From assembly GCA_000611775.1 (NCBI GenBank), contig KK106981.1, positions 5,458,927 through 5,522,926 of the forward strand: a DNA stretch of 64,000 nt. The letters run 5' to 3'. The position numbers and the translations under genes were made by a program. The notes beneath the pieces are model-generated. The model made no database searches and was not told where the DNA came from. It saw only the letters and a list, made by a program, of their open reading frames with translations. The first letter of the stretch is position 1; the number at the start of each line of letters is the position of its first letter. Shown in pieces: positions 1,336-20,214 of the stretch. Source of the DNA: Umbilicaria muhlenbergii (lineage: Eukaryota > Ascomycota > Lecanoromycetes > Umbilicariales > Umbilicariaceae).

Positions 1336-3135
1336 CTACATCTCCACCTTTGCTGCAGTTTCCGGCTTGGGCGCCGTGCCCTCGCGTACTTTGATCCTCA
1401 GCCTCACTGGGCCCTTCTGAACCATCATGATGACCGGGAACTTGTCAAAGTCCACCTTTTCATTGGCATCCTCCGTAAAGTCAAACGCCCAAAGAAGCCG
1501 GCAGAGCACGAGGCGCAGCTCAACCCATGCCAACGGCTGACCCAGACAGCTATGGAAACCGAGACTGAACGGACGGCTAGCAGTCAATCTATCCTGTGCA
1601 TAGGCTGCAGGCCGCTCATCCATGGGCAGCCAGCGCTCAGGGACGAAGGTGTCCGGGTTAGTGAAGTATTTGGCGGAGCGATTGACGGCGAAGGTACGGA
1701 CGCCAATGCGGGTCTGGAGGAGACGGTTAGCTTAGCCACGGACACGTTTGGTTTCCACGATTTTTCCACATGCGAGGTGAAAGGGAACTCACACCGCCTG
1801 GAAGATACACGCCACAGTAGGTATCGCCTCCTGGCGGAACGACCCGAGGCAGCCCGCTGGGAATGGGGTTACACATGCGCAAGCCTTCCTTCAGGACAGC
1901 TTCCAGGTATGGCTGACCCTTGCAGGTGTCAATGGTGATATCCTCTTCATGCTCAAAGGTGCCTCGGATCTCATTGCAGAGTCGCCGTGAGACAGCCTCA
2001 TTGCGGGAAAGATGATTGAAGATTCCTGTCAGTACAGTTGCGCTGGTCTCTGCCCCACCCACGATGATGAAGTTGAAGGTGGAGAGCATCTCAGCGCGGG
2101 ACATGTTCTCAAAGTTCACGTTGTTTCTCATAAACGGTGTCATGAAGTCTGGTCGGTTCGTCTTGGTGTTCAAGCGCTTGTTGATGCGTTCATTGGCGTA
2201 CTGCTGATGCCGGAGCTGCCCGTCGAGTATGCTCCGCGGCATCAGCTTCTTGAGCAAAAACTCCAACGAAGGATAGTATCGCGGCGCTGCGGCCAGCGAC
2301 ATTCCCTTTAAATAGCTGAACAGTGTCCGCACCCAGATATGGTACTCGCCGCGCGCGATACATCCAAAGGGCTCCCCGAAGGCCAGGTCGCCGATAACGT
2401 CCATAGTAAAAAAGTTCACCCAGTCTGTTATATTCACAAGGGTTCCCAATGTCGCACCCTCAGATGCGGTAGCGAGTTCACGAAGCTTGTAAACCAGGGT
2501 GTCAGCGTGATGCTGGATCAAGGGATGTTGTGTTCGAAGGGAGTCTTCGGTAAAGGAACTACTGAGTAGACCGCGCACGCGCATATGAAATTTGGGGTCG
2601 TTGGTAGTTATGATATTGTCCACCTCCTCATTGGGTGCTGAGAGGATCAGTACATGTCCTTTCCTAAATAGAGAATATATCGCCATCGAGCCGGCTTTCT
2701 GAGAGAATTACCGCTAGCAAAAACTTTATCCCTGAGGGCTCTTTTGTGCCCGCGGCGGAAGGTGTAGATATCATCCCAAGCTTGCTCATTTGCGAAAGAG
2801 ACCTCGTCAGGCGCGAGACGGACGACGTCGCCATACTTCTCGTGCAACTCGCGTTGCCGGCGAATCAGCTTTCCGGTCAAGAGACAGTAAACGAAAGGCA
2901 GTCGAGACGCAGCCCAAAGCTTGGGGCCTGGAAATTTGCGAGCAAGGGGATGGAAGAAGAGATTATAGACTGCGTTCGCGACAGGATACTTGAGAGAAGT
3001 CAGCTGAGCTCGAGGGCGCGGGGCCAAGAAGAATGAGCGGGGAGAACTTGCGGCCAACACAGCTAAGACAGCAAGAAAGACCTGAAGGGTCACGTCGTTG
3101 TGTACGGCATGCGTCAGCGTACTTAGAATCGCCAT
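1336..3135 (-). CDS. Cytochrome P450 monooxygenase (microsomal class)
   Basis: Haem-thiolate monooxygenase, likely tailoring enzyme of the adjacent diterpenoid cluster. Proposed exons on the minus strand: 3135-2712, 2637-1793, 1713-1336, giving 548 aa. Features: N-terminal membrane helix (about residues 15-35), proline-rich hinge FPGPK, I-helix GGAETS, K-helix ExxR (EGLR, about 392-395), PERW, and haem loop FSLGFHSCLG with the cysteine near 479. Intron 1 was placed by phase: donor GGTAATT at 2711 and acceptor CTCTCAG at 2640-2638 join to FASAPNEEV, the usual sequence in the isotrichodermin-15-hydroxylase-like fungal P450s; the nearer acceptor gives the wrong frame. No inactivating change seen. 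Substrate cannot be read from sequence; role in the cluster is inferred from location. Confidence 0.88.
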
Positions 3136-4777: not shown

Positions 4778-6361
4778 ATGTGGGTTATTCCTGAGGACAA
4801 CGTGGAAGGCCGGGCTTTTATGATCGTCGTGATCGTCTTCCTCGTCCTCGCTACTTTCCTGTTTTCTTTGCGGATCTGGGCGCGGCGCATCTGTAGAGCG
4901 TCGCTTGATGCCAGCGACTATACTTGCTTTTTGGGCCTGGTCAGTATGCGCCGCACGGGATCAGCCTAGAAACTGGGCCACGGCAACTTTTCTGGTAATG
5001 TTGGCTTACTTCGTTCACAGGTCCTTGATGTGGGTTTGACTGTGATTTTATGGGGAAGTACGCCGGATTTCTCCCGAACCTTATTGCATCACTTCTTTTC
5101 CCTTTTCTTGCATCGCCCGAAGCCCACCAGTCATGATTCAAATACTGATCGGCTTGACACAGCTTTCTCGCACGGCTGGGGACAGGACATCTGGCTATTC
5201 ACCAAGGACGATGCTAATCTTTCCGCAACGGTAAGCAGATGGATTCCGCTTTCAAGCAATCGAGAGTATTTCGTCACCAACTCCTCTCTGTAGCTCTTTG
5301 TCGCTATTGATGTCGTTTGGAACGCCGCCGTCACTGCCGTGCGGGTCTCGATTCTTCTTTTCTATATCAGAGTCTTCGCTATCCCACGTTTCCGGAAGGT
5401 CTGCTGGGTAGTCATAGGGCTCAACCTGGCGTCTCTCGTGGCTGTGATATTCTCAACATGCCTTATCTGCAGTCCCATCGCTTATTCGTACGACCGCACC
5501 ATACCCGGTGGCCACTGCGGCAACTTGAATGCTTTTGAGCGCTACACGGCCATTTGGAACCTCCTGGCCGATGCGACAGTCGTTGCCCTGCCCATGCCTA
5601 TACTTTGGAACTTGCAGATGGAAACTAGGAAGAAGGTCGGGCTTAGCATCATCCTTGGCATGGGGACCATGTATGTTTCTTCCCGCCCTCATGGTTTTCA
5701 TTCGTCGACTTTCATAGTGTCTTTCATCTCCTCCCCAGAGATCCAACGGGCGACAAAATCCGCAGAACACTAACTTTCTGAGCGTAGTATCTGTATGCTT
5801 ACCGTGACTCGCGTCTTTATCTCTGCATACTACGATCTCGATAATAACACAAAGCAAAATGCGATCGTCGCTCTCATCACTGGCCTCGAGCCCATCATTG
5901 GCGTCATCAACGCCTGTCTTCCCTTCCTTCCTTCCGTCCTTCGGCGCATTAGCCATACGCAACTATATCTAACCGCGAGTCATCATTTCCGGTCAACAGC
6001 AGCTGGCACTCGGTACGGGCATGGTACCGCCGGCAGCGGCCACGGCGACAGCGGCGGCGGCAGTAGCCTCAACATGGGCAAGCAGGACATGAGCTCCGGA
6101 ACGCAGATCCTGCCACGCGTTGGCAAACGAAACAATGCCTTCAAGGAGCTGAGTGATAGGGATATGGAGATGAATCTGCTGCATCAAGCGTACCTGGGTG
6201 ATGGGCTTAGAAGAGACTGTACCATTTCCGGAGGAGCCTTGGGCAGTGCCAAGGAGGAGAACGAGGAGCAAATCCAGCAGCCGCCGCAGGGATGGAACAA
6301 AAGCTTGGCAGGCATTCAAGTGAGGAAGGACTTCTCCATCGACAGTGAAACGCGTGTCTAG
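4778..6361 (+). CDS. Rhodopsin-like (SAT4/Pth11-type) integral membrane protein
   Basis: Seven-helix plasma-membrane protein of the fungal rhodopsin-domain family; members are often annotated SAT4 or Pth11-like, and their ligands are mostly unknown. Proposed exons 4778-4939, 5021-5057, 5163-5230, 5294-5670 and 5788-6361 keep phase throughout and give 405 aa. Evidence: N-terminal helix followed by a short basic loop, the family's GWGQDIW-like loop, LLFYIRVF, a cysteine-containing loop (CGNLNAF), NLLADATVVALPMPILWNLQM, and the signature near the end of the domain, GLEPIIGVINACLP. A long Gly/Ser-rich cytoplasmic tail follows. Such genes often lie in secondary-metabolite clusters; whether this one has a sensing or transport role here is unknown. 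Confidence 0.82.
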
Positions 6362-6568: not shown

Positions 6569-9500
6569 CTACCGAGCTTGCTTGGTCTCGTTTGTCACAT
6601 CTCTGACAAGGTACATGTCAGAGAACTGGTCCCCGCCCGCATAGTAGACCCCCAACAAATCTGCAATCTTCTTACCGTCTGCTCCTTCCGCTTTCAGCTC
6701 GTTGTACAACTCATCCAGCTCTTCGTTTGTGCGTCGTCGCTCGTACTCCGCGGCTGCGAGCAGTGTCTGTTTCGTCTGCATCAGCCTGAACTTTGCATCA
6801 AGCTCCCCTGCCGAACAATCTCTGGCCTCGTCGCCGTCGCCAAAGAACTCTGGAAAGTTTACACTGCTCAAATTGTCCTCTTCGGCATCACGCGCAACGG
6901 ATCCATAGTCGTTGTACATGCGCAGCTGTTTCGCGGCGTGTGTGTTGCAGTTCCATGCCATGAGTTTCTGCTGTACGCTGCTGAAACAGTCCTTTCCCTC
7001 CCCTCGCACTCGACTACCGACGACGCAAGTGAAGAACACCAAGCCAATTAGCGCACCAATATGGCCGCCGCCCACGGTGTGTAGCCACGCCGCATACCCC
7101 ATGCGAGGCGTAAGGAAGCGGAGGTGCGACGAGGAGTGGTGTTGCTTGGCAAGGCGTTGATTATCTTCGAGCTGATGAACGTGACAGAGAAGGTAATTTC
7201 TCGTCTCCATGCGCAAGTCGAGCAGGTCGATGGCAGAAGCAGATACGACGCTCTCGTAGGTCATATGATAGCGGGCCCAGGCGCCGAAAACGCCGAGAGC
7301 AGCTCGAACGCGGTCGCTGTGAACAGATGACGATTCTATCGGATGAATGAGTAATATCCTTTTCTTCATCCGGTCCGTCGCGGTTTCACTTGGTAGTCGC
7401 TGAGGTCTCGCTGCGTGGGTACCATCGATGCCCTCATGTTCGGTAGAGGCACCATGTGAACCTTCGATCAGTGAGATTCCATTAGGCTCTATGTCTGCTT
7501 GCAGGGAATCGTCCATCGTAAACATCTTTTCTATTCCCTTGCGAAAGGCAGAAAACTCTTCCGAGGTAAAACTTGCCACTTTGGATTCCATGTACTCGTC
7601 CACAAGAAATATGAACATTGATAGGACAGCAATGTCCCATATGAACTGTGGTGGCGTGTAGATGCCACGAACGATGCTATGAATCGACCACATTATTGGA
7701 ATATAATCAAGGTATTTATCCTTTTCCTTCGCCGCGGTCGGCGGAAATATATCGTTCCGCATAGCCTTAAGCATCGATACATAGAGAGCGCTTTCCAAAG
7801 CCCCCGCTTTGATCTTAAATATCGGCTCTTTAGCCAGATTATCGAGACCATGGAAGAACCTTGCGAGAGCGAGAACTTTTTGTGATTGCTTGTCCTTGGG
7901 CACTTCATTCTGCTCATTAGAGCCATGCAGCTTGAATGGCTTCTGCATGGCCGCGAGAGAGAATGCTTCCGAGAGCCGATCTGATCCGTAGGCTGTTTTC
8001 TCAATCCAGAGAGAATGGGATTTTGCCCAAGAATCAGGCATCATCGAGAGAGCCTGGCGGCCTCTTTCAACCGCATGTCTGATGTCCATGTTCAAAACAC
8101 GCACGTGCGGAAGTCTAGCCATAGCAATCAGTGCGAGAATAGCGTAGGCAGTGGTCTCCGAACATCCACGTGGGCCCCAGGATCCATCGTTGTTCTGAGA
8201 CGATAGTACATTGGCCAGCATCTGGACTATGATGATTGGAGCACGATTCTCAAGATCATCGGCAGTGACCAGGGTAGGGGACGTGTGGTGTGAAAGCTCG
8301 AAAATCTCCAGGTAACATTCAGCGAAGAGCATTATTGGGTAAAGCGGTGACCGGGACTGGCAATTTGAGTAAGCCTTCAGAGTGGCCAAACGTATTGGTA
8401 GATCCTACGTACCAAGGTGCTTTCTCTAGTCCCAATCCACCATGAAGCACAGATTGTTTTGAATATGCTTGAGATATGAACGTTGGACTTGTCCGCCCTA
8501 GGGCTACGTAGCAACGTTTTCAGTATGCGGCAATGCTCGTCAAAGCTCGTATTGCAAGTCTTGATACTGCTGAGGAGCTGAGTCTCAAGCTGATCACAGT
8601 GCTGAATCTCATTGGTGTGTGCAGATAGCTTGTACATGAGGAGTTGCGTAGATAGATCCAGACTTTCTATAGCTTCGCGAGGTTATTGGAAAAGGCTAAG
8701 TGACTAGCATAATAGACAAACTGACTTTTCAATTGACATACCATGCATTGAAGAAATACTGGGCTGACCGAGGCTTTTGCTATTGGTTATAAGTACAGTG
8801 TCATTGATGATAGTGGTTTCATACAGCCCACTCTCAACAAGTACTTCAATGGTCTTCACTACGATAAGCAGTTTCCCCAGCAAAACAAAAGTGCCTGAGA
8901 AATGATCAACTTACGTACGCAGCTTCAACAAGGCTGGGAGGAAAGACGTTGGGAACACCTCCGCGTGTTCCTGTCGCTTTGATGGCAGCTGACAGATACG
9001 CCTCGCATTCTTCATCACAGACCTTGGAAGTAAGCAAGAATGCCGCTGTTGATGAAGGTGAGCATGAGATCCCACGATATGATTTACTGTCTTCCAAGTG
9101 TTGAGATTCTACGGCGTCCATATAGGCTTCTAGGAAATATGGCATTGGGCTGAGCCCCTTGCTTTGTGGCGACGCAGACGCAGCTCTAGCAAGCCATTCC
9201 GCTCTTTGCTCCTCGACTTGCGCGCTGCCGCGATACTGGAAGTGGAAATTTTCTGCCTGCAACATTGACAGTAATACTGGCACCAGGACGATCGAGCCAA
9301 AATGTGCATCAGACTTCGAATCCCATTTGGCCAATTGCCCTCGCAGAAACTCAGTGGCTTTGCTGGCCCGTAGATCCAAAGCAGCAGCAGCATCCTCTGA
9401 CTTGCCAGAAAGGCTCTTCCGGCGCTTTGTTATTGCAAGCAGGCCGGCGAGTGAGTTAAGAATTGTGCCGAGCTTGAAGTCGCCCATCGCCCAGCCACCA

Positions 9501-9736
9501 TGGACTTGTTGGTGGTCGAGCAAGTACTGGAAGGAGTCAGGATAGACCAGCTCAGTGGGCTCATGATCTGTTGTTGTTGTTGTTGTTGTTCGGGATAGCA
9601 TCGCAACCCAAGCGGTGTCGTAGATGGTGGGCCGCAATCTGTGTGAACTGTTGTCGGCATCAAGCGGTCCGTAAAGCCCTTTAACCAGCGAGTAGGCCCG
9701 TGATTTGTATTCAGACTGAGCCATTGTTCGTTGCAT
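6569..9736 (-). CDS. Diterpene cyclase, class I-active (kaurene-synthase-like) with degenerate class II site
   Basis: Fungal CPS/KS-family enzyme. Exons on the minus strand 9736-8915, 8853-8742, 8666-8413, 8356-6569 give 991 aa, the size of a full bifunctional enzyme (about 950). N-terminal gamma/beta domains carry YDTAWVAM and QW-like repeats (DGSWG). The C-terminal alpha domain has the fungal metal-binding DEYME (about residue 649) and the NSE-type motif NDYGSVARD (about 878), both as in gibberellin-pathway CPS/KS. The position of the class II acid motif DxDD reads SLDL (residues 313-316), and the preceding stretch is shortened, so class II protonation should be lost. Expected role: convert a copalyl-type diphosphate, supplied by the cyclase at 13952, into a tricyclic or tetracyclic diterpene. 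A Thr run (CAA/ACA repeat) sits near residue 50. The ATG at 9724 is an alternative start. Confidence 0.9.
9569..9590. repeat. Trinucleotide microsatellite inside the cyclase gene
   Basis: A run of GTT on the plus strand encodes seven consecutive threonines near the N-terminus of the diterpene cyclase. It falls between the YDTAWVAM motif and the next conserved block, where length variation should be tolerated. Confidence 0.85.
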
Positions 9737-9989
9737 CTAGAGCAAGGGATGTATAAGTATTGCTCAGGGCAGAATTCGAATCGCTCAAAGGAAAGGACGA
9801 CTCTGCTTGAGAAAGGCGACTTCGCCGGTTTTAGCACATCAGATAACCCTCCAAACAATAATTGATCCGAAGCAGCAGAAGCAACAAGGCTGAACTAGGC
9901 GGTGTAGAGACGCCTACCACGATAGCATTAACGGCTCCTTAGGCCGATGTTCCGCCGCGAGTAATGTAGGGTGCGGTATAGGCCTGAGC

Positions 9990-10120
9990 ATCGAGGCAAT
10001 AAGGTAAGTAGTATAAGCTGATGCTGTAATCTTCTTAACTTTAAATGATTCACTGCTGACTTCCTTCATAAGAATAAACATCAATTAACTGAATAATTGA
10101 ACCCTACAAATTAATTTATA
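9990..10120 (+). repeat. Interspersed repeat, copy R2
   Basis: Diverged relative of R1 and R3: shares CTGCTGACTTCCTTC, AACATCAATTAACTGAATAATTGAACCCTAC and GTAA-type words in the same order. It is more AT-rich than R3, consistent with C-to-T decay, and lies nearly head-to-tail with R3. Confidence 0.45.
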
Positions 10121-10145
10121 GCAGTATCCCTGCAAATGATCTTTG

Positions 10146-10250
10146 CCCTGCTGTAAGCCGGTTATGTAAGCAGATTAGTTTCAGTAGTTCGCTGCTGGCT
10201 TCCTTCCTAAAATAAGGTAGACACCAATCAACTGAATAATTGAACGCCAC
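10146..10250 (+). repeat. Interspersed repeat, copy R3
   Basis: Best match to R1 at 3655-3755: TGTAAGCCGGTTATGTAA, CGCTGCTG, TAGACACCAATCAACTGAA and AATTGAACGCCAC in order. It directly follows R2. Confidence 0.5.
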
Positions 10251-10334
10251 GACAGCAGTCGAGCACGCTAAGCCGAGCATATACCTGGCTTCTTCGCTCA
10301 CCGAGCTTCTACTTCCTTAGCAGTTAGTGGTTCT

Positions 10335-10431
10335 AGCAACTATAGGTCTACGAGCGAATTCCGAGCCTAAGCCTCGTGAGTCGAGCACCTGTCGAGCACT
10401 CGGCGAGTGCTCGACTAGGCCTATAGTTGCT
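10335..10431. repeat. 97-bp hairpin (nested inverted repeats)
   Basis: Outer arms AGCAACTATAGG (10335-10346) and CCTATAGTTGCT (10420-10431) are perfect complements. Inside, 10391-10415 is a 25-base palindrome (arms of 12 around one G) built on TCGAGCACTCG. Several further TCGAGCA words lie nearby. The form suggests a foldback mini-element or a remnant; location is 190 bp beyond the 3' end of the exporter gene. Confidence 0.7.
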
Positions 10432-10622
10432 CGACGCCCCATGTTCCTGTCGCAGCACCCCCTTAGAACGCCGTCGCCGTCCGGGCAGCCGCTTACAGAA
10501 TGTTTGCACTTTTGACATCTTCTCATTAAGTCTGATATGCTTGCCTAACAACACGCACGTGGGGTTAGAATCTTGGAGGAGTATTTGGCTAGGCAACAAG
10601 GATGGCCGACCCAAAATGCAGT

Positions 10623-12757
10623 CTATGCCGGCATGCCATTCGTCGCCTCTTCACTTTTGGTCCTTGAACTCCCTGCTTCCTCGCCCACGCCGCTTTCTAC
10701 TCTGGCTTCGTTCTGCTTTTCCGCCCTTTTCTCCTCTTCTCTCTCTCTACTAATCTGTTTGATATTCAACCATTCCATCCCGCACGCCGTCGGTACCGAT
10801 ACGCAGATGACAACTAACAAAAAGACGTTGACACGCGAGACTGCCAGAGCCCATGCCTCTCTCAGACCTTGCAACACGCTTGCTGATGTCGTCAATGATG
10901 TCAGGTCCAATGGACCAGCGATCACAACAGTGTCAGCAGACACACTGGGCGCCAGCGCAGGCACATACGAGTGCAAAGACGCAATCAGAACAGCATTACC
11001 GATCGGAACTCCGAGAGAGCTGCGAAAAGTCAGTGTATGAAGGAAGAGCTAATGAACGTCAATAGAGGAAGAGCTTACCCGCCGAGCTGACCGAAGAAGC
11101 TTGCAATGCCTACCAAACATGAGCATATTATTGGGGATTGAACGGTAGGGCAGGGCTCACCATTCGCAATAAAGATGTCATTGTCGCTAGATGAGGAGAC
11201 ACCATTAGCCTTGTCGTGAAGAGCGACTGTGAAAGATGACTCACTTCTTCATAACAGCTTGAATTGCTATATGTGGCACGTTAACACCTAAACCAAGGCC
11301 AAGGCCGGTCAAAACCATAAAGGTCGCCCATAGTGCCGTGGAGGTATAAGTATGTAGTGTTGTCAAAAGCCCTGCTCCTACTCCGCATAAGACTTGAGCG
11401 AAAAGAATCACGGGCATCTGGCAGGTAAGTCATCAGTATATTCCTTGTCAGCATAGAATAACAAGCATACATAGTGGCCTGTTGTAGTTGTAATACCGCC
11501 ACCTGCGAGGAGACCAATCATCTGTGGCACTGCAAGAGACATGTAATTGACGCCGCTTTGAAGAGGAGTATCATTCAGTGCTGCTTGAAAATAGAACGGC
11601 ATATAGTATATCGTCTGTAGCGGAGTTAGTAGATCTCCAGTCAGTCTATGACAATACTCACAATGTAAGAAGCCATGTTATCCCAAAACAAATATAATGA
11701 TCCCCAGATAACAGTTCGATTTTTTAGATAATGCAACGGGACTGTAGCATTTTCTCCAGCCTTCCACTGCCAGACTCCAAAGACAATGAACAATAAGCCA
11801 AACCCAATAAACAGCCCGATAGGCTTAGATGAGGCCCACGGAACCTCCGCACTTCCCTCTTGAAGAGCCAGAAACAGGCACGAGACTGAAGCGATAAGTA
11901 GAACCACACCCGGTACATCTAGCCTTCGAAGCTTTGTGGCTAGTGAAATTTCCCGCGTTGACCGATCAACCCCGACGAGCGTTAGGAAAAGAAGAACGAG
12001 GCCGAACACGAGGCCACCTACGGGCAGGTTTCTGCCCCACAAACGTACTTAGCTCCTGGTCAGAATAGGCATTCAGCAAGCACTTACAGCCAAAAGCACC
12101 ATCTCCAAGTGGAGTCTTGAGTCAATACTCCGCCAATAACGGGTCCGATGCTTGCGAAAAGGCCGAAGAGACTGACAACACCTCCAAGAAAGAGTGGACG
12201 CATCTCAAGTGAGCAAACATATGTCAGAATGCCGAAAGCCCCTTGAAGGAGCCCGGCGGCACCAACACCAGCAATGGCGCGGCCGGTGATAAAGGCACGA
12301 GAGGTTGGCGCAGATGCGCAAACAACAGAACCCACTGGAACGGACTCAGTCTTTGACCGTCGAGAGAAGGGGAGATAGAAAGGCAAATGGCGCGTCGCTT
12401 GGAGGAGCACGCACCTTCGAAAATCATGATAAATACCATATAAACGTACTTTGGGTTGAAGTACTTGTAGAAATTCGCGGCGGTGGGCGTTGTCGCCGTC
12501 AACATCATGGAGTACGCAGCGCCGTACCAGCCGACATCGTTGAGCGCTCGGAACTCGGTCGCGATCTTTGGCGTGGCGACGGAGATAATGGTAGCGTCGA
12601 GAGCCATGAGCGTCGTGCCAAGCATGAGCGAGATCATGATGATGGCGAGCTTGATCCCTTTGGGATATTGCTCTTCGTCGTGTCTTTCCATGGCCACCTC
12701 TGCCGGCGACAAACTGATCAAGACAGAGTCTTGGTGTTCTGGCTTTGGTTCGGCCAT
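10623..12757 (-). CDS. MFS exporter, DHA2 family with 14 membrane helices
   Basis: Proton-coupled drug or metabolite exporter. Eight exons on the minus strand (12757-12415, 12334-12088, 12031-11662, 11614-11471, 11417-11245, 11186-11161, 11109-11079, 11019-10623) keep phase and give 576 aa. Evidence: family motif LDATIISVATPKIATEF in helix 1, GAAYSMMLTA, the motif-C-like region GPVIGGVLTQ, TWRWCFWLNLPVGG, and GNAVLIASL. The C-terminus is a charged cytoplasmic tail. It lies between the two cyclase genes and shares a 1.2-kb upstream region with the short cyclase, so a role in exporting the diterpenoid is likely, as the PbTP transporter does in the Phoma betae aphidicolin cluster. Unusually short exons of 26 and 31 bases were accepted because each restores phase and conserved residues. 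Confidence 0.88.
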
Positions 12758-13951
12758 CTGTTATGTTTGCGGCTTGAGAAAGGAGCGACACGTCGTGCAC
12801 TTGTTCAGGAGCTGAGATTCAGGAAAGATACCACGGTTGGGGTACGGGGGGAGGGGCTGCGGGTAGGCGGCAGCGGGCCGGCCTCCATGGTAGGAATCTG
12901 GGCCCCTCAGGCAGAGGACAAAGGCCAAAACTCAGGTAGTACGGAGCCGTACACCATAAAGGATGATTCGCGCCTCAGTACTGCATGTGTGACTGCATGC
13001 ATGTCATCACTCCTCATCCTCCGGCCCCACAAGGCAGGTGCCTTGCTGTTGCCGCCGCCCCGACCCCCGCTGCACCGGCGGGAAATTCACACCTCTGCTC
13101 TATCTCTGCTATATCTCTAAAAGCTCCTTCAGCCCAGCTACACGTGACGCATAAGGCGCGAGTCATCACTTATGGTGTACGGCTCCGTAGTACCATTGAG
13201 CTAGTACCATCAAGGTAGTACTATCAAGGTAGCGACAGTAAGGTAAGCACTTAGCGCCTGTCCTGCAAGACTTCTGGATCAGCGCTGCTGACATTGGTCA
13301 AAGTGGCAGGGGTGTTCGCGATCCCAGCATCAGCTGGTGGTGGGTTGCACTTTTAAGGTTCCTGTAACTCCGTACAGAACTACACCTCTGGACTTTGGTT
13401 TCGGGCGAGAAGATGCACGGCATCCAAGTAGCCACAAAGAACCCTTGGCCATCCTATATCATTCGGGAGTGTGGGACAACGATCGGCTTTGGATGGTGCG
13501 CCTTCCTCGCCTGGCTGGGGCTGCTCGGCCACCTACCTGTACCTGCCAGGCGGGCTCGCGCAGGGCGTCGCCGCAATAATTTACACGTTTCAAACGAAAT
13601 CAATTACAGACCCGGTACCATCTCCTCCCCTACCCGAGCTCATTTGAGGCGGAACATATGAAAGAACACTGTTATCGGTCTGGATGCCCCGGAAGCGGTG
13701 AAGCTCGAGATGTGTGGGTTAAAATCACCGAGTAAGTGGGTGGGGGCTTCCTGGACGGGTGTTTTGGGGCTACTTCTTAAGGCGACTGCCATCGATCTCC
13801 GTCGGTCTCAGCTTCTTCCTCCTTTCGAGTGTAGAGTTGGAGGCCGTTGATGTAAGGTCTAGGCTCTTTCGTAACACTATTGAATCTTTCGTCTTTGCCT
13901 CGGCTTGCCTATTCTGCATGCATTTCCAGTTGAAGCGAGAATACCAACGCC
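12758..13951. promoter_or_regulatory. Divergent promoter region of exporter and short cyclase
   Basis: The only upstream DNA for both the exporter (minus) and the 608-aa cyclase (plus), so co-regulation is plausible. It contains a 260-bp inverted-repeat element (12935-13194) followed by short direct repeats of AGTAC(C/T)ATCAAGGTAG at about 13190-13245. No clear TATA box was identified. There is no credible gene in it. Confidence 0.6.
12935..13194. mobile_element. 260-bp MITE-like element with 25-bp terminal inverted repeats
   Basis: Left end 12935-12959 begins GGTAGTACGGAGCCGTACAC and continues CATAA; the right end 13170-13194 is its reverse complement except for one base (G/C at position 5). 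The inner 210 bp show no reading frame and no internal repeats. No target duplication was clear. Each arm contains GTACGG-AG-CCGTAC, an inverted CGG pair. Confidence 0.8.
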
Positions 13952-15963
13952 ATGGCCGTTGACTCCCATCCACGCATCGACGCTCTGCTTGCCAGCTTGT
14001 TCGATGTCTACGATCATCGTTATGGCCTCGGCGCCATGACCTGCAGTGTTTACGACACCGCCTGGGTCGCAAACGTCACGAAGACTGTCGCCGGCATTCC
14101 ACAGTACCTATTTCCATCTTCATTCTTGTTTGTTCTAGATGCCCAGCTTCCGAATGGCTCTTGGAGCGCCCACTATTACCCCGAGGACGCTACCCAGATC
14201 TCCCATGCTTCATCAAATGCTTCATCTAACCTCTCGGATTCTATTTTGTCAACCATGGCCGCCCTGTATACCCTCAACCTTCATGCCGTGTCTCCGCATC
14301 AGATCCATCCAGCTCGCCTTCCTGCTCCATCCCTCTCTGCCCGCATCGTTCGGGCTGCCGCCAGCCTGGAAAGTATGTTACGCATATGGCGCACAGACAC
14401 TTGCAACGCTGTGGGCTTCGAGATTCTTGCCCCGGCATTGCTCGACCTCCTCGCTACGCAGGGCCATACCTTCGATTTCCCTGACTGCGCAACAGTGCTC
14501 AACATCCGCGCGGCTAAGATGCAGCACGTACGACCTGCGATGCTGTACGCAATAGCTCCGGCAGCACTACTGCACAGTCTGGAAGCGTTCCATGGATGGA
14601 CCGCTGAGGACTTCGACGTGAGGAAGGTGAAGCATCACATGGTCCGAGGAAGTATGATGGCAAGCCCAGCCGCAACAGCATCATACTTGATGAAGACGCC
14701 CGAGTGGGACGACGAGGCAGAGGCGTATCTTAGATTGGTCATCGAGTGTGGAGATGGAAAAGGAAGGGGAGGAGTACCCAGTGCATGGCCTTCAACTAAC
14801 TTTGAGATAATCTGGGTAAGGTGGGAACAATAGGCTTATTGTGGGCCAACTTGGCTAAAATGATTTCTAAGGTCGCATCAACGCTCTTGGAAGTCGGGTT
14901 GTGGGCGCAGAATGACAGTGGAGCCCGGCGCGAGCTTGTATCAGAAATCATCGACGACGCCAGAAAAACAAGTGGAGGACTTGTAGGATTTAGTAATGTT
15001 TTCAAGTTTCTAAGCATCGAACACGCGTTGACACAAACCAGCTCCGGGCATTGAGCCTGATCTCGATGACAGCGCCAAAGCATCAATCATTCTCAGTCTC
15101 TCCGGGAAGCAAGGATTCTCGAAGGCTATTGTCGAGAACTTTGATGCACCAAAATGCTTGAAAACATATCGTGCAGAAAGAGACCCGAGTATCAGTGCCA
15201 ATTGCAACGCGCTTCTCAGTATCATTCTCGATAAAGAAGATTATTCATCAAAAAGAGCGGCGATCGAGAAAATTACCAATTTCATCTGTGATAGCTGGAT
15301 AGATACCCAAGGTATCATCAATGATAAATGGGTAAGTCATTTCTGCTGAAGCTACTTCTTATGATCTGCTTTCATGTTCCGAAAGCTAACACTATGCCTC
15401 ATTGGCTAAAGAACCTATCACCTCTCTATCCCGCCATGCTAATGGCACGCTCTCTGACTGAGCTGCTACGTATATGTAATACAGGCAAACATCCCCAAAT
15501 AGCAAGAGGTTTGCTTGTCGAAAAGGTGGTACCTGTCCTGCTCAAAAGTTTGGTACGTACGCTGCAGTCTCAGCAATCCGATGGATCATGGGGCCGTGTA
15601 GGCCCACGTGAAGAGACAGCATATGCAATCCTTACACTAGCAAGCCTGCTTTCTCTACCATTGGCACAGGCCGTGCGTGGCGAAACAATACTTGCGCTGC
15701 AACGAGGCCGAAACACCCTTTCGAGTATGGAGGGTCGGAAGCCCGAATACTTATGGATTGAAAAGGTCACGTACGGATCGAGGTATCTAGCGGAAACCTA
15801 TGTCGCAGCAGCGATGTTTGTGAGCGTTGATAAGTCGGTCGAACATGGAATCAAGGAGTTCCGTCATGTCGAGGTGTGTAAAGAGGAGACATTAGCATCG
15901 CATTTTGATAAGTACAGGGTTGATGAACTCGCGGCGCTACAGAATGGTACGATGATCAGCTAA
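13952..15963 (+). CDS. Monofunctional class II diterpene cyclase (copalyl diphosphate synthase-like), lacking the class I domain
   Basis: Exons 13952-14815, 14872-14992, 15042-15331 and 15412-15963 give 608 aa. The N-terminal half matches fungal CPS/KS: YDTAWVANV, NGSWS, HSLEAFHGW, RGSMMASPAATASYL, WDDEAEAYLR. Exon 3 contains the class II acid motif PDLDDSAKA (DLDD at 335-338). The beta-domain repeat SDGSWG and EETAYAI follow, then YLWIEKVTYGSRYLAETY, and the protein stops where the class I alpha domain would begin; no DEYME-like or NSE motif is present in or downstream of it. All three introns match the long cyclase in position and phase. Expected reaction: GGPP to a bicyclic copalyl-type diphosphate. 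I judge it an intact gene because the frame is open and the class II site conserved, but decay of a longer gene is possible. Confidence 0.87.
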
Positions 15964-17866
15964 GAGCCGATGAGGATTCACAAAGCAATACCGGAACATT
16001 ATGGAGATGAGATAGCCGGCAGCGAGGCCTTCAGTACCATATAGCATGGAAAATTAGAATCACTTTAACTGTCTTCTCCTGCTTGGAAACAGTATTTGAG
16101 ATAAGGAGGGCAAGTTGCAAGAATTGGATTATCGTTGCCAAGTAAAATCCTCGATCCATCATAAATGTAACGGAGAATGTCTAAAGCAAAATTCAAAATT
16201 ACCCGAATAACCCCCAAAACTTCTAAAGTTCTCGTTTGACCCCTAATGTTCTATAGAGATGTTTTCACCGCGCATTTCGGGCCCAATTTCATGCGTTAAT
16301 TTTATGTTTCAGGTTGTTTAGAAAGCCCCCTGAATTGACTACAATTTACAGCCCACTCCTCGCCTCGCCGTGCTTGTTTCCTTCGTGGACTTTTGACTTA
16401 CCGTGTCATAGACTCAGCCCTTGGACGCCGCCTTGCTGTCTCTGCCCCCTCCGCTGCCCCTGCTGTCGCCCCCATGCCGCTCCGCCCCCCATCCTCAAGA
16501 CCTTGTCCCACAGCTGGGAGGTCTCCTGCATCTTCGATGCCTGAATCTGGGGCTTCGCCTTGGGCCGCCGCCGCCCTCACAGAGGGTCTCGTCACGCGGC
16601 CTGATCAAGTCATCGCTCGAGGGTGTTGAGGGGGAAGGTGAGAGGGTGAATTACTGTTGTCTGAGATGGAATTTGTGATCTTCTCAGCTCAGGGAGAGGT
16701 GCTGCCAGTCTGCAGAGAAGGCTGAGAGTAGTGAAGAATGCTGTATTAGAGGATGTTTTTGAACAGACTCTGATTTGCTGATAGAGGTGACTCAACTGAG
16801 TCATGACTTTGTCTTATGATCTTGTTGAACTGCTCCTCTGAGAGAAGGTTTTCTGTTAGCTCAGCACGAATTCTTCATCAACAAACTGCATCAGCAGCAG
16901 CTGTCTGAGGGTTGATAATCTTCTCTCCTTGATGAATTGTTTTTGCTGTGACTTATTTCTGACTGTGAGAAAAGTCTGTGATCTCCTTCATCATGAAAAG
17001 AAAATAAGCCTCATTAAAGTTCTTTTTTATGAATAACTGAGCAGATAGTTTCTTTGCCTCTTTATCTTTCTCATTGTCTTTTTTGTCATCAATTGCAACA
17101 GTAGAGAGTTATTTTAAACATTTACTGTAAAAGTAACTTGAGTGAATTTGAAGCTTGAATCATTATCACTTGTGACAATTATATGTTTTATTCTTTTCTG
17201 AGAATTACATCCAGTGTTACTGCGCTATAATCAAATATCTTAAATATTCCTGAGTCTGCTTATTGATATATATAAATGCCTGCGCACGGAGAGGCGTCTC
17301 CAAAGACTGAGAGTGAGAGAGTTCACCCTTTCAAGGCGTACGCCTGCCCAAATGCCTATGTGACCGGTGATGGGCTAATCCACGCGTGAGATTCCCGCGA
17401 CGATAAGGGCTGTGGATGTCAAAGCTCGTTGATCACTACAAGTTAAATATATTGCTGAGGCGTAATATCGAGAACATTTGCAGTGATATCATCACTGTTT
17501 AGTGCGGCTTGTAATTATTATTATTATTTTTACTATTATTTTTCTTGGGTTACTTGGGGTACTGATTCAGAGTTCGTCAAGAGGTTTGAGGCAGTGGTTA
17601 GGACGGTACATCCGTGTTCTAAAATGTGAGGAAATGAAGGAACAGATAGTTGTGGTAGAGGTAGCTTTCTGATACGTTGTTTCCAGTCCAAAGGCAGTGA
17701 GGACAGCGTCCAGGTATTTTGAGGCATTATGCGCTTCATGAGCGAAATATGATCAGTGCAGAACTTTCCACATCATGCTCTATGATAGTGTACAAATGTG
17801 AGGTGTTTTGTTTGATAAATTAATATCATGCCTCCCTGATTGTTTCTATCATTTGTCACGCAGCAT
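15964..17866. other. Long gene-poor stretch with decayed repeat DNA
   Basis: 15964-16330 includes short words repeated in many fungal repeats (AATAACCCCCAAAACTTC) and no gene. 16380-16620 is GC- and CpG-rich with an open frame of low-complexity Pro/Ser/Ala composition that I do not recognise. 16621-17280 is a CpG-depleted block described separately. 17280-17866 is AT-rich, with a (TTA)n-like run near 17515-17545 and no gene. Confidence 0.5.
16621..17280. repeat. CpG-depleted, mutation-scarred block (probable repeat remnant)
   Basis: Across these 660 bases I find only two CG dinucleotides (near 16867 and 17223), while TG and CA are abundant. The DNA directly to the left is dense in CG, so the boundary near 16620 is sharp. 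The minus strand has short open fragments broken by stops but I cannot name a family. Selective loss of CpG points to methylation-linked or repeat-induced C-to-T change of an element. Family unknown. Confidence 0.6.
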
Positions 17867-18652
17867 TCATCTCCACATCATGATAACTGCGACGACAGCA
17901 ACACTCCCGGCGATAATCTCAGCCCATCTAATTAGACCCCTTTGCACATGCTTCTTAGCAAAGGTATCAATTGCATCCCCATCATTGATCTGTGGGAACG
18001 GAACTCCGTCCGGTACCTCCTTGTCCAGCGCCTTGCATAACGGCTTCCAGCCATCTTTCACATTGAAGAAAACCAGCCGATCCTCGGGCACGGTTCTCTT
18101 CAGCCAGGCGATGTGTCGGTCATACGTCAGCGTGGTGAGCGGCTCCCTCTCGCCGTACAGCTCGATCCACGCGTCACGCAGCACATTGATGTAGTCGACA
18201 AAGTAACGCAGCGCCGGCAGCGGGAAGAGCACGAAGCGCAGGAACCACATAGTCGCGGCGTTACTGACGCCTCCAATGCTCTTCTCCCACGACTTGGAGT
18301 CGCGAACCGTGCAGACGACTTTGGCGTCGGGATACAGCTCCATCAGCTCCGGCACGAGTCCTGAGGCTGGCGCGTCGGTAGTGGCGGCGAAGCCGTCGAG
18401 TCGGCTCGCCATAAGATCGAGGATGAGGCGTTTGTCCGAGTCGTTCCTTGCCGGCCAGTGCGAGAGCACTTTGATCCACGATTTGATCTCGATTTCGGGG
18501 CCTAGCGTGGTTTGGGTGCCGCCGTGGTACACGGGGCCGTCGAGGAGGATCTCCAGCGCGCGGCTGAACGAGGCGGTTCCCGTGCGAGAGAGACCGGCGC
18601 CGATGACCTGAAGTTTGGTCCCGGGTTTCGGTACGGAGGCTTGTTGGCCCAT
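17867..18652 (-). CDS. P-loop sulfotransferase-like protein (Sulfotransfer_4 type)
   Basis: Single-exon 261-aa protein. The N-terminal P-loop GAGLSRTGTASFSRALEIL binds the 5'-phosphosulfate of PAPS in sulfotransferases, and CTVRDSKSWEKS fits the 3'-phosphate site. The C-terminal residues (about 238-258) form a hydrophobic helix, suggesting membrane anchoring. Fungal members are common and mostly uncharacterised; many are annotated as NAD-dependent epimerase/dehydratase by error. It is the last gene before the repeat-rich border of the accessory block, so it may or may not belong to the diterpenoid pathway. No defect seen; the start codon is well supported by the immediately following family N-terminus. 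Confidence 0.82.
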   Translation of the reverse strand: MGQQASVPKPGTKLQVIGAGLSRTGTASFSRALEILLDGPVYHGGTQTTLGPEIEIKSWIKVLSHWPARNDSDKRLILDLMASRLDGFAATTDAPASGLVPELMELYPDAKVVCTVRDSKSWEKSIGGVSNAATMWFLRFVLFPLPALRYFVDYINVLRDAWIELYGEREPLTTLTYDRHIAWLKRTVPEDRLVFFNVKDGWKPLCKALDKEVPDGVPFPQINDGDAIDTFAKKHVQRGLIRWAEIIAGSVAVVAVIMMWR

Positions 18653-19021
18653 GTTTGAGAACTATCCAACAGCACACGCCTTGAAAGATTACTTGGAGCT
18701 GGGAGGTGCGTTTCAGGCAAATGCAGTAGAATCGTGGTTGCTCAGTAATTAACTTCAGCGAGTGCTAGAAGCTGGCAATCACAATATCTGTGATCGATGA
18801 GTTTGATGTGAATAAGATATCTTCAGTTCGAACTCTGCACTAACTTAAAGATGTACTTAGAGTGAGGATTTTTATTCTGCAGTTGTGTTAATAATGCAAA
18901 ATTATAACACTTCTTACTATAAAGAAGTACGGTGCTGAATTTGTAATAATGTGAAATATATAATTTAGCTGATTTATAATTGATTTTACATTCAAAAAAG
19001 TTGGCTTTTTTTGTCATAATA

Positions 19022-19059
19022 CTGTCTCTTATACACCTCTAGATGTGTATAAGAGACAG
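19022..19059. other. Probable Nextera mate-pair junction adapter, copy 1 (artefact)
   Basis: The right half is exactly the Tn5 mosaic end AGATGTGTATAAGAGACAG, and the left half is its reverse complement with one mismatch (CACCTCT for CACATCT). Two mosaic ends back to back in this orientation form the 38-bp junction of the Illumina Nextera mate-pair kit. Not native sequence. Confidence 0.85.
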
Positions 19060-19152
19060 TGCATACTGTCTGCTTGAGCCAAAAAAGTTATTTCATTAGC
19101 TGATTTATAATTGATTTTACATTCAAAAAAGTTGGCTTTTTTTGTCATAATA

Positions 19153-19190
19153 CTGTCTCTTATACACCTCTAGATGTGTATAAGAGACAG
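19153..19190. other. Probable Nextera mate-pair junction adapter, copy 2 (artefact)
   Basis: Identical to the copy at 19022-19059, including the single mismatch, exactly 131 bases further on. Confidence 0.85.
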
Positions 19191-19424
19191 TGCATACTGT
19201 CTGCTTGAGCCAAAAAAGTTATTTCATTAGCTGATTTATAATTGATCTGACATTATTATTTCTTGTTTGTTATGCTTATCATTACTTAATACAGCCTTTA
19301 ATAATTTCACTTCATTTATATAACATATAATTCACTGTTTCACAAGCTGTTTATTATGAGGCGCTAGCGTATTGAGGCAAAAAGACCACTATGACAGGCC
19401 CCGCAGGGGTCTGGCATCCCAATA

Positions 19425-19827
19425 ACGTATCCCACGGGGCAACGCCGCACTATAGGCAACGCCGCACCCCCCCCCCCCCCAACTATTGAAATTACCCATT
19501 TCTCCACCATAATTGCATGCATTCAATGGAGAAAGAAGTGCGTATTCTGAAGGCCATTGAGGCCTATAATAACGCTCTTACAAATCCAGAAAGCAGCTAG
19601 AGACACAGGCTAGGAAGTCAAAACGGCTGCAGGATAAAGAGGAGAAGCAGACTGCGAAGACTGCAGTTGTCACAGCAAAAGCAGCCTTGGAGGTGCTGAA
19701 ATGCATAGANNNNNNNNNNNNNNNNNNNNNNNNNNNNNNNNNNNNNNNNNNNNNNNNNNNNNNNNNNNNNNNNNNNNNGGGGGGGTGCGGCGTTGCCTAT
19801 AGTGCGGCGTTACCCCGTGGACTACGT
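19425..19827 (+). mobile_element. pogo/Tc1-mariner-like DNA transposon, internally deleted, nested insertion with TA target duplication
   Basis: Terminal inverted repeats of at least 48 bp start ACGTA(T/G)(C/T)CCACGGGG and differ at three positions; they run into a C-tract on the left and a G-tract on the right. TA duplications flank it at 19423-19424 and 19828-19829. From ATG 19526 a frame starts MEKEVRILKAIEAYNNALTN, like the start of Fot1/pogo transposases. It then shifts frame into a lysine- and alanine-rich helix (KQLETQARKSKRLQDKEEK), like the end of such a protein, so the middle, with the DDE catalytic core, is missing. 69 N interrupt it at 19710-19778. It cannot move on its own. Confidence 0.75.
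19710..19778. other. Assembly gap (69 N)
   Basis: A run of N lies inside the nested transposon, just before its right-hand G-tract. Homopolymer tracts and the inverted repeats explain why assembly stopped here. Confidence 1.
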
Positions 19828-20214
19828 TATTGCTCATAAGGTATGGTGCGGCGGCCGCGCGCTTAGTCAGCGCCTCTCGGCGAAGGCAGGCCTCACTGGC
19901 GAGCGCCTGACTTTTACACTCTGTGAGCTTAGCTTGATGAAGGGATAACTCAATGAGATCATGATCATTATTACAAGTATTTCTGAGCTATGCAACTGCA
20001 AAATATGTGGTGAATATTGTCACAGATTATCAAGAGGCCTCAATGAGAGTTTAATAAAGAAGGATGTGATTTTGATACTGTTCTGAATGTAGTTAACATA
20101 ATATGAGTCGTATAGTACATTTTTCGCTTTGCAGAACACACACTTCATTTATAATAAAAACACCAACACAGAGCTTCCAATCCATGACTCAGTGCACGCA
20201 TTGCATTGCCTACC

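What the first reader, a model, noticed from the sequence alone, without database searches (positions are those of the whole stretch)
6569..15963. A diterpene cyclase split into two single-activity genes (class I-only and class II-only) in one cluster
Most fungal labdane-related cyclases are bifunctional CPS/KS proteins. Here one gene (991 aa) keeps the class I motifs DEYME and NDYGSVARD but has SLDL at the DxDD site; the other (608 aa) keeps DLDD but has no class I domain at all. They are complementary, lie 4.2 kb apart around an MFS exporter, and a P450 is nearby. A division of labour between two paralogues is known from Phomopsis amygdali (PaDC1/PaDC2), but physical loss of the whole alpha domain from the class II partner is, as far as I know, unusual in fungi.
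Basis: partly seen in the sequence, partly recalled or inferred. Interest (0 to 1): 0.88.

Follow-up and report, generated by a model that had tools for sequence, protein, structure and literature searches.

The report
Conserved split diterpene cyclase pair
Two neighbouring fungal genes each carry one half of a diterpene-making enzyme that in most fungi is a single protein, and matched pairs of the same kind appear to sit together in other moulds and lichens, which suggests that an old fused enzyme was divided into two cooperating ones.

Summary
Gene A (minus, 9736-6569, 991 aa) keeps the class I motifs and has no DxDD. Gene B (plus, 13952-15963, 608 aa) keeps EPDLDD and ends after the beta-gamma part; no alpha remnant was found downstream. 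B is not a local truncation: 16 EPDLDD proteins without class I motifs form a clade (100/98), in which 8 alpha-less ones, B included, form a subclade (100/100). 9 of 15 non-window clade members, including 7 of 7 of the alpha-less subclade, have an A-type protein on a contig of identical length; in Villophora MFS, A and B are neighbours too. A-type proteins form one clade (100/100); of 42 checked none has DxDD at the class II site, though only 11 reach it. Best explanation, not assayed: B makes copalyl (or a related) diphosphate and A finishes the skeleton. The kind is known: Arthrinium AsCPS/AsPS (PMC10999977, 2024). New here: complete alpha loss, recurrence and linkage of the pair, and a surviving intermediate stage. 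The PaDC1/PaDC2 precedent is not supported by what I read.

The parts
6569..9736 (-). Gene A: class I-only diterpene synthase, 991 aa, gamma-beta-alpha length with a dead class II site; exons 9736-8915, 8853-8742, 8666-8413, 8356-6569
8653..8664 (-). SLDL (residues 313-316 of A), the likely place of the lost DxDD motif, just after intron 2; the alignment here is uncertain
   Evidence: no D.DD anywhere in A
13952..15963 (+). Gene B: class II-only diterpene cyclase, 608 aa, beta-gamma only; exons 13952-14815, 14872-14992, 15042-15331, 15412-15963
15042..15331 (+). Exon 3 of B, which carries the EPDLDD motif
10638..12757 (-). MFS transporter gene (low end approximate), same strand as A and upstream of it, divergent from B; matched in 6 pieces (60-93% identity) by the MFS part of the Villophora model that is fused to its A-like protein
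1336..2707 (-). Cytochrome P450 ORFs (PF00067), probable tailoring gene; exon structure not modelled
5294..5773 (+). ORF of a fungal rhodopsin-domain membrane protein (PF20684); membership of the cluster uncertain
17867..18661 (-). Sulfotransferase_4 (PF17784) ORF downstream of B; possible tailoring gene, membership uncertain

Best explanation
A and B are the two halves of one two-enzyme pathway to a labdane-related diterpene. B, a beta-gamma protein with the DLDD general acid, would cyclise geranylgeranyl diphosphate by protonation to copalyl diphosphate or a related bicyclic diphosphate. A, whose alpha domain keeps both metal-binding motifs but whose class II site is gone, would ionise that product and complete the polycyclic skeleton; a P450 and possibly a sulfotransferase would decorate it and the MFS protein would export it. 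Evolutionary model: an ancestral bifunctional gamma-beta-alpha enzyme was present in two copies; one lost its class I site (alpha first degenerated, then was deleted in one lineage: B), the other lost its class II site (A). Shown here: gene structures, motif states, clades, and co-occurrence on contigs of identical length. Inferred: all catalytic activities, the intermediate and product, GGPP supply from elsewhere in the genome, and cooperation of A with B.
For: B keeps 25 of 25 invariant and 51 of 53 nearly invariant columns of a 30-sequence alignment; A keeps 18 of 25 and 31 of 53, with changes at D312, D314, E351 and N359 among others. B aligns to solved fungal copalyl diphosphate synthases over residues 12-565 of 608. 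In 15000-20000 the significant alpha-query matches lie in B's own exon 4. Tree of the beta-gamma region (64 rows): 16 EPDLDD proteins form a clade (100/98); the 7 of them that still have an alpha region lack both class I motifs; 8 alpha-less ones form a subclade (100/100). A-type proteins form one clade (30 rows of 46, 100/100). 9 of 15 non-window B-clade members, including 7 of 7 of the alpha-less subclade, have an A-clade protein on a contig of identical length; none of 44 other hits that I compared does. Adjacent or near locus tags in three: Villophora Q9218_006544/006545, Seirophora villosa LQ345_001436/001435, Hymenoscyphus HYFRA_00010091/00010094. Distances of 10 A/B pairs correlate, r = 0.83, 0 of 10,000 permutations as high. 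Window against Villophora, A is 42% identical in residues 12-390 and 68% in 395-678. The one further locus found in the genome with A or B, C4:354.9-357.2 kb, has in-frame stops and no match to the N-terminal part. Experimental precedent in a fungus: AsCPS/AsPS.
Against: No activity, transcript or product was measured. No GGPP synthase match lies in the window: polyprenyl synthase loci were found on C6 (two) and at C1:9.82 Mb, unlike Arthrinium. 6 of 15 B-clade members had no same-length A contig (P0006, P0007, P0009, P0012, P0013, P0014), two of them on contigs over 100 kb, though one search listed 120 of 152 hits and took only proteins of about 545 aa or more. Contig identity is inferred from equal length. 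Only 11 of 42 A-type proteins reach the class II site. The distance correlation is also expected from shared species history. The Villophora models are imperfect near the class II site, which may lower the 42%. Structure prediction was not obtained.
Confidence: 0.81

Rival explanations
1. A and B belong to two separate pathways that merely share a locus: B feeds another class I enzyme or a phosphatase (bicyclic labdane products), and A acts directly on GGPP or another prenyl diphosphate.
For: Neither activity has been measured; class I enzymes acting directly on GGPP are known in fungi (PMC10175467 passages); in Corynespora a motif-complete synthase P0069 shares the contig length of the pair.
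Against: 9 of 15 B-clade members, 7 of 7 in the alpha-less subclade, have an A-type protein on a contig of identical length; MFS, A and B are neighbours in Villophora; no other intact synthase locus was found in this genome with A or B as query.
Confidence: 0.09
2. B is a broken or wrongly modelled gene: an ordinary bifunctional synthase whose alpha domain was lost recently, or lies beyond a missed exon.
For: B stops just before the alpha domain would start; another synthase copy in this genome is clearly decaying.
Against: No alpha match in 15000-20000 beyond B's exon 4; seven relatives with the same architecture in other genera form a 100/100 subclade with B; 25 of 25 invariant columns intact.
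Confidence: 0.03
3. Same two-enzyme pathway, but A and B act as one physical complex: the catalytically dead gamma-beta part of A is kept as a docking surface for B, so that the bicyclic diphosphate is channelled. (A sub-case of the best explanation, so the odds overlap.)
For: In the window and in several partners A keeps 824-991 aa (Sporormia, Aaosphaeria, Clohesyomyces, Corynespora, window) although its class II site is gone; recurrent pairing and correlated divergence.
Against: The gamma-beta half of A changes faster than the next part (42% against 68%); some A models are much shorter (Hymenoscyphus 690, cf. Caloplaca 574, Seirophora villosa 562 aa), though some may be incomplete; AsCPS and AsPS worked as separately purified proteins mixed in vitro, which does not exclude a complex.
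Confidence: 0.2

Closest known systems
AsCPS / AsPS of Arthrinium sacchari (PMC10999977)
   Same: Fungal two-enzyme route: one protein with class II activity only, one with class I activity only, genes clustered near oxidoreductases.
   Different: AsCPS keeps a truncated alpha domain and AsPS has no gamma domain; a GGPP synthase is in the cluster; the authors found similar clusters only with one bifunctional enzyme. Here B has no alpha, the window's A is full length, no GGPP synthase match is in the window, and the pair recurs in several genera. The one Apiospora protein among the hits (P0068) lies outside the B clade, so the two splits may be independent; AsCPS itself was not available to place, and one search scored a capped set of candidates.
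Bacterial class II diterpene cyclases with beta-gamma architecture (for example PDB 5bp8, 6vpt)
   Same: Beta-gamma only, partnered in bacteria by a separate class I enzyme (architecture as stated in PMC10999977).
   Different: B is 24-30% identical to the bacterial hits and nests inside the fungal synthases; the bacterial class I partner is a single alpha domain, whereas A keeps beta and gamma.
Fungal bifunctional CPS/KS-type synthases (aphidicolanol, ent-kaurene and similar)
   Same: Same family; A and B each resemble it in one half.
   Different: Those carry DxDD and DExxE in one protein; A and B carry one each.
PaDC1 / PaDC2 of Phomopsis amygdali
   Different: Both sequences show DxDD and DExxE in Table 1 of PMC4617483.

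Membership tests
Fungal bifunctional CPS/KS-type diterpene synthase | DxDD and DExxE/NSE motifs in the same polypeptide | tested here: not met
   A: no D.DD, class I motifs present; B: DLDD, no alpha
Class II-only diterpene cyclase (B) | DxDD and the surrounding conserved class II columns | tested here: met
   25 of 25 invariant columns
Class II-only diterpene cyclase (B) | No class I domain | tested here: met
   Protein ends after the beta-gamma part; no alpha match downstream
Class II-only diterpene cyclase (B) | Makes a bicyclic prenyl diphosphate from GGPP | not testable with these tools
   needs an enzyme assay
Class I-only diterpene synthase (A) | Asp-rich and NSE-type metal-binding motifs intact | tested here: met
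   VDEYME and NDYGSVARDAEE in A; Asp-rich motif in 42 of 42 A-type proteins, NSE-type motif in 41 of 42, absent only from the cut-off Villophora model
Class I-only diterpene synthase (A) | Class II acid motif lost | tested here: met
   No D.DD in A or in 39 of the other 41 A-type proteins; the 2 matches (P0149, P0162) lie C-terminal to the class I motif; 11 of 42, A included, reach the class II site
Arthrinium-type fungal two-enzyme pathway | Separate class II and class I synthases clustered together | tested here: met
   for the window; by sequence only
Arthrinium-type fungal two-enzyme pathway | GGPP synthase in the cluster | tested here: not met
   no PF00348 match in the window
Arthrinium-type fungal two-enzyme pathway | Common descent with AsCPS/AsPS | not tested
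   their sequences were not in hand; the one Apiospora hit (P0068) is outside the B clade

The most novel reading that the evidence does not exclude
An old lineage of ascomycetes (lichen formers, Pleosporales, Hymenoscyphus) divided the fused diterpene synthase into an obligate, genetically linked pair, with the loss preserved in steps (alpha active, alpha dead, alpha gone), independently of the Arthrinium case, and the dead gamma-beta part of A survives as a docking platform so that A and B work as one complex. This would reverse the fusion that is thought to have created eukaryotic diterpene synthases.
Probability: 0.2. Interest if true: 0.78.

Novelty: new variant of a known kind. Interest (0 to 1): 0.62.

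Why it matters
A review assigns the labdane- and kaurene-type diterpenes of fungi to bifunctional class I/class II enzymes (PMC10175467 passages), a research paper says that most fungal diterpene synthases have fused both activities (PMC10512213 passages), and one published exception was found (PMC10999977). Here the split type recurs as a pair in ten genomes (the window and nine others inferred from equal contig lengths), and the intermediate stage (dead alpha domain still attached) survives in relatives, so domain loss can be followed step by step. Surveys that discard short proteins miss the class II half: PMC4617483 set aside as too small a Rhytidhysteron gene of 855 + 942 nt, and PMC10512213 left out sequences under 600 aa. 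Two separable fungal halves would also be useful for combinatorial diterpene synthesis.

Tried and rejected
Considered and rejected: B as a local truncation (seven relatives with the same architecture; no downstream alpha). Two independent alpha losses for Peltigera P0006 and the main subclade: one common loss is not rejected (p-AU 0.165), so no claim is made. The PaDC1/PaDC2 precedent: not supported by the texts seen. A GGPP synthase in the cluster: no match. Pfam gave no family at E 0.01 for B, for A's last exon (A was not scanned whole) or for P0003 and P0131, so family scans were uninformative. Organism: not identified; the nearest named relative of both genes is the lichen Villophora, which suggests but does not show a lichen-forming fungus; the rRNA search did not complete. 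The first search with A drew its words from the decayed half and found 11 proteins; the second, on residues 395-991, found the partners. Rows dropped: one search aligned 71 rows (proteins of 500 aa or more, bacterial and plant hits left out); rows with under 380 residues of beta-gamma were dropped, 60 of 71 kept, and 4 bacterial rows added. Seven partial or near-duplicate rows were dropped before (73 rows), and 46 rows were chosen. One literature search held a badly formed term.
Full report
What is there. The window (C1:5458927-5522926 of an unnamed fungal genome of 34.8 Mb in 7 contigs) carries gene A on the minus strand (9736-6569) and gene B on the plus strand (13952-15963), with an MFS transporter between them. 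I rebuilt both genes from the DNA. A has four exons and 991 codons; B has four exons and 608 codons. All six introns are GT-AG. B's three junctions fall in blocks that align without gaps right at the junction to seven relatives. A has the class I motifs VDEYME and NDYGSVARD and no DxDD anywhere; B has EPDLDD.

B is a complete class II unit by sequence. Of 25 columns invariant in a 30-sequence alignment B keeps 25, and of 53 nearly invariant ones 51. A keeps 18 and 31; its changes include D312, D314, E351 and N359 of the reference. B matches the solved fungal copalyl diphosphate synthases 8v0f and 9q3i from residue 10-12 to 565-566, after which those proteins continue for about 400 residues and B for about 42. 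B's tail is not shared by its relatives. tblastn with the C-terminal parts of ten proteins found nothing convincing downstream of B; the significant matches in 15000-20000 lie in B's exon 4.

B is one of a family. Among the hits are short EPDLDD proteins of 518-639 aa in Villophora, Aaosphaeria, Clohesyomyces, Sporormia, Corynespora, Peltigera, Periconia and Amniculicola, and seven longer ones (788-953 aa) in Variospora, Dirinaria, Hymenoscyphus, Seirophora and Heterodermia whose alpha region lacks both class I motifs. In the tree of the beta-gamma region these 15 and B form a clade of 16 (100/98). Its sister is a pair from Dirinaria and Coniocarpon with both sets of motifs (99/98 for the 18 together). 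Inside the clade, eight alpha-less proteins including B form a subclade (100/100). Peltigera's short protein falls elsewhere with weak support (87/57), and a single common loss is not rejected (p-AU 0.165). The simplest reading is a series: bifunctional, then alpha dead, then alpha gone.

B's relatives come with a partner. A search with residues 395-991 of A (best 120 of 152 hits listed) returned a clade of A-type proteins (30 of 46 rows, 100/100; 36 of 73 rows, SH-aLRT 100). Of 42 such proteins all keep the Asp-rich motif and 41 the NSE-type motif (the exception is the cut-off Villophora model); none has DxDD at the class II position, but only 11, A included, extend far enough upstream to show it; two have a D.DD string C-terminal to the class I motif. 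Three of the nine have adjacent or near locus tags (Villophora, Seirophora villosa, Hymenoscyphus). Six had no match (P0006, P0007, P0009, P0012, P0013, P0014). Against an exclusive pairing, a motif-complete Corynespora synthase, P0069, also has the contig length 716,862 of P0005 and P0131. A metagenome pair, P0095 (a partial protein resembling the alpha-degenerate B type) and P0138 (A type), also shares a length, 25,615, and is not counted above. In Villophora the annotated model fuses an MFS protein to the A-like protein; its MFS part matches the window's MFS gene in six pieces at 60-93% identity. The window's MFS gene lies upstream of A on the same strand, and in Villophora the B-like gene has the neighbouring tag. 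So the neighbourhood MFS-A-B is conserved there; the strand of the Villophora B gene was not seen.

Constraint agrees with the division of labour. Between the window and Villophora, A is 42% identical in residues 12-390 and 68% in 395-678, while B is about 61% identical; the Villophora models are imperfect near the class II site, so the first figure may be low. Pairwise distances of ten A/B pairs correlate (r = 0.83, none of 10,000 permutations as high); shared species history contributes and was not removed.

Nothing else found in the genome can obviously stand in. Searches with A and B found one further locus, C4:354.9-357.2 kb, which retains DADD, VDEYME and NDYGS but has in-frame stops and no match to the N-terminal part. 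The PF13249 match on C5 reads like an oxidosqualene cyclase such as lanosterol synthase (recognised from recalled motifs, not scanned). Polyprenyl synthase loci were found on C6 and at C1:9.82 Mb, none in the window. These searches score only the best candidates.

How it probably works. B cyclises GGPP to copalyl diphosphate or a relative; A ionises that product and finishes the skeleton; a P450 (1336-2707) and possibly a Sulfotransferase_4 protein (17867-18661) modify it. Motifs, clades and co-occurrence are shown; activities are inferred from homology and precedent.

What is known. PMC10999977 (whole text) reports a fungal two-enzyme pathway, AsCPS and AsPS of Arthrinium sacchari, both needed to make (-)-sandaracopimaradiene, and calls it unprecedented for fungal labdane-related diterpenoids. 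AsCPS keeps a truncated alpha and AsPS lacks gamma; the authors found similar clusters with one bifunctional enzyme but none with separate ones. In the listings of my ten literature searches (open-licence PubMed Central only, several listings capped) I noticed no other fungal case. PMC4617483 (section 5 and the first part of section 6) set aside as too small a Rhytidhysteron rufulum gene of 855 + 942 nt, about 599 codons, and lists another gene of that species without DxDD; this may be a further such pair, untested.

Verdict. A well-supported split diterpene synthase pair: a new variant of a kind described in 2024, with complete loss of the alpha domain, a surviving intermediate stage, and recurrent linkage in several ascomycete genera, which I place in different classes from general knowledge, not from a call. 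On checking, the report's confidence was lowered slightly (0.82 to 0.81, and the first rival raised to 0.09) because of P0069.

Noticed in passing
[quoted passage not shown] a decaying bifunctional-type copy.
   Followed up: partly
window 12935-12975 and 13154-13194: A 41-nt inverted repeat, 90% complementary, between the divergent MFS and B genes; possibly a small mobile element or a regulatory palindrome.
   Followed up: no
P0049 and P0155 (Aspergillus heteromorphus, contig length 1,232,053): An A-type class I-only protein (624 aa) shares a contig length with a 505-aa class II protein (marked partial) of a different clade from B; perhaps an A-type enzyme with another class II partner.
   Followed up: partly
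Possibly an independent loss of class I activity.
   Followed up: partly
PMC4617483, sections 5 and 6: Rhytidhysteron rufulum has a discarded short gene of about 599 codons and another gene without DxDD: a candidate further split pair.
   Followed up: no
window 19710-19778 and L023 about 490-830: Stretches that read N, with similar flanks on both contigs; probably a dispersed repeat of this genome.
   Followed up: no
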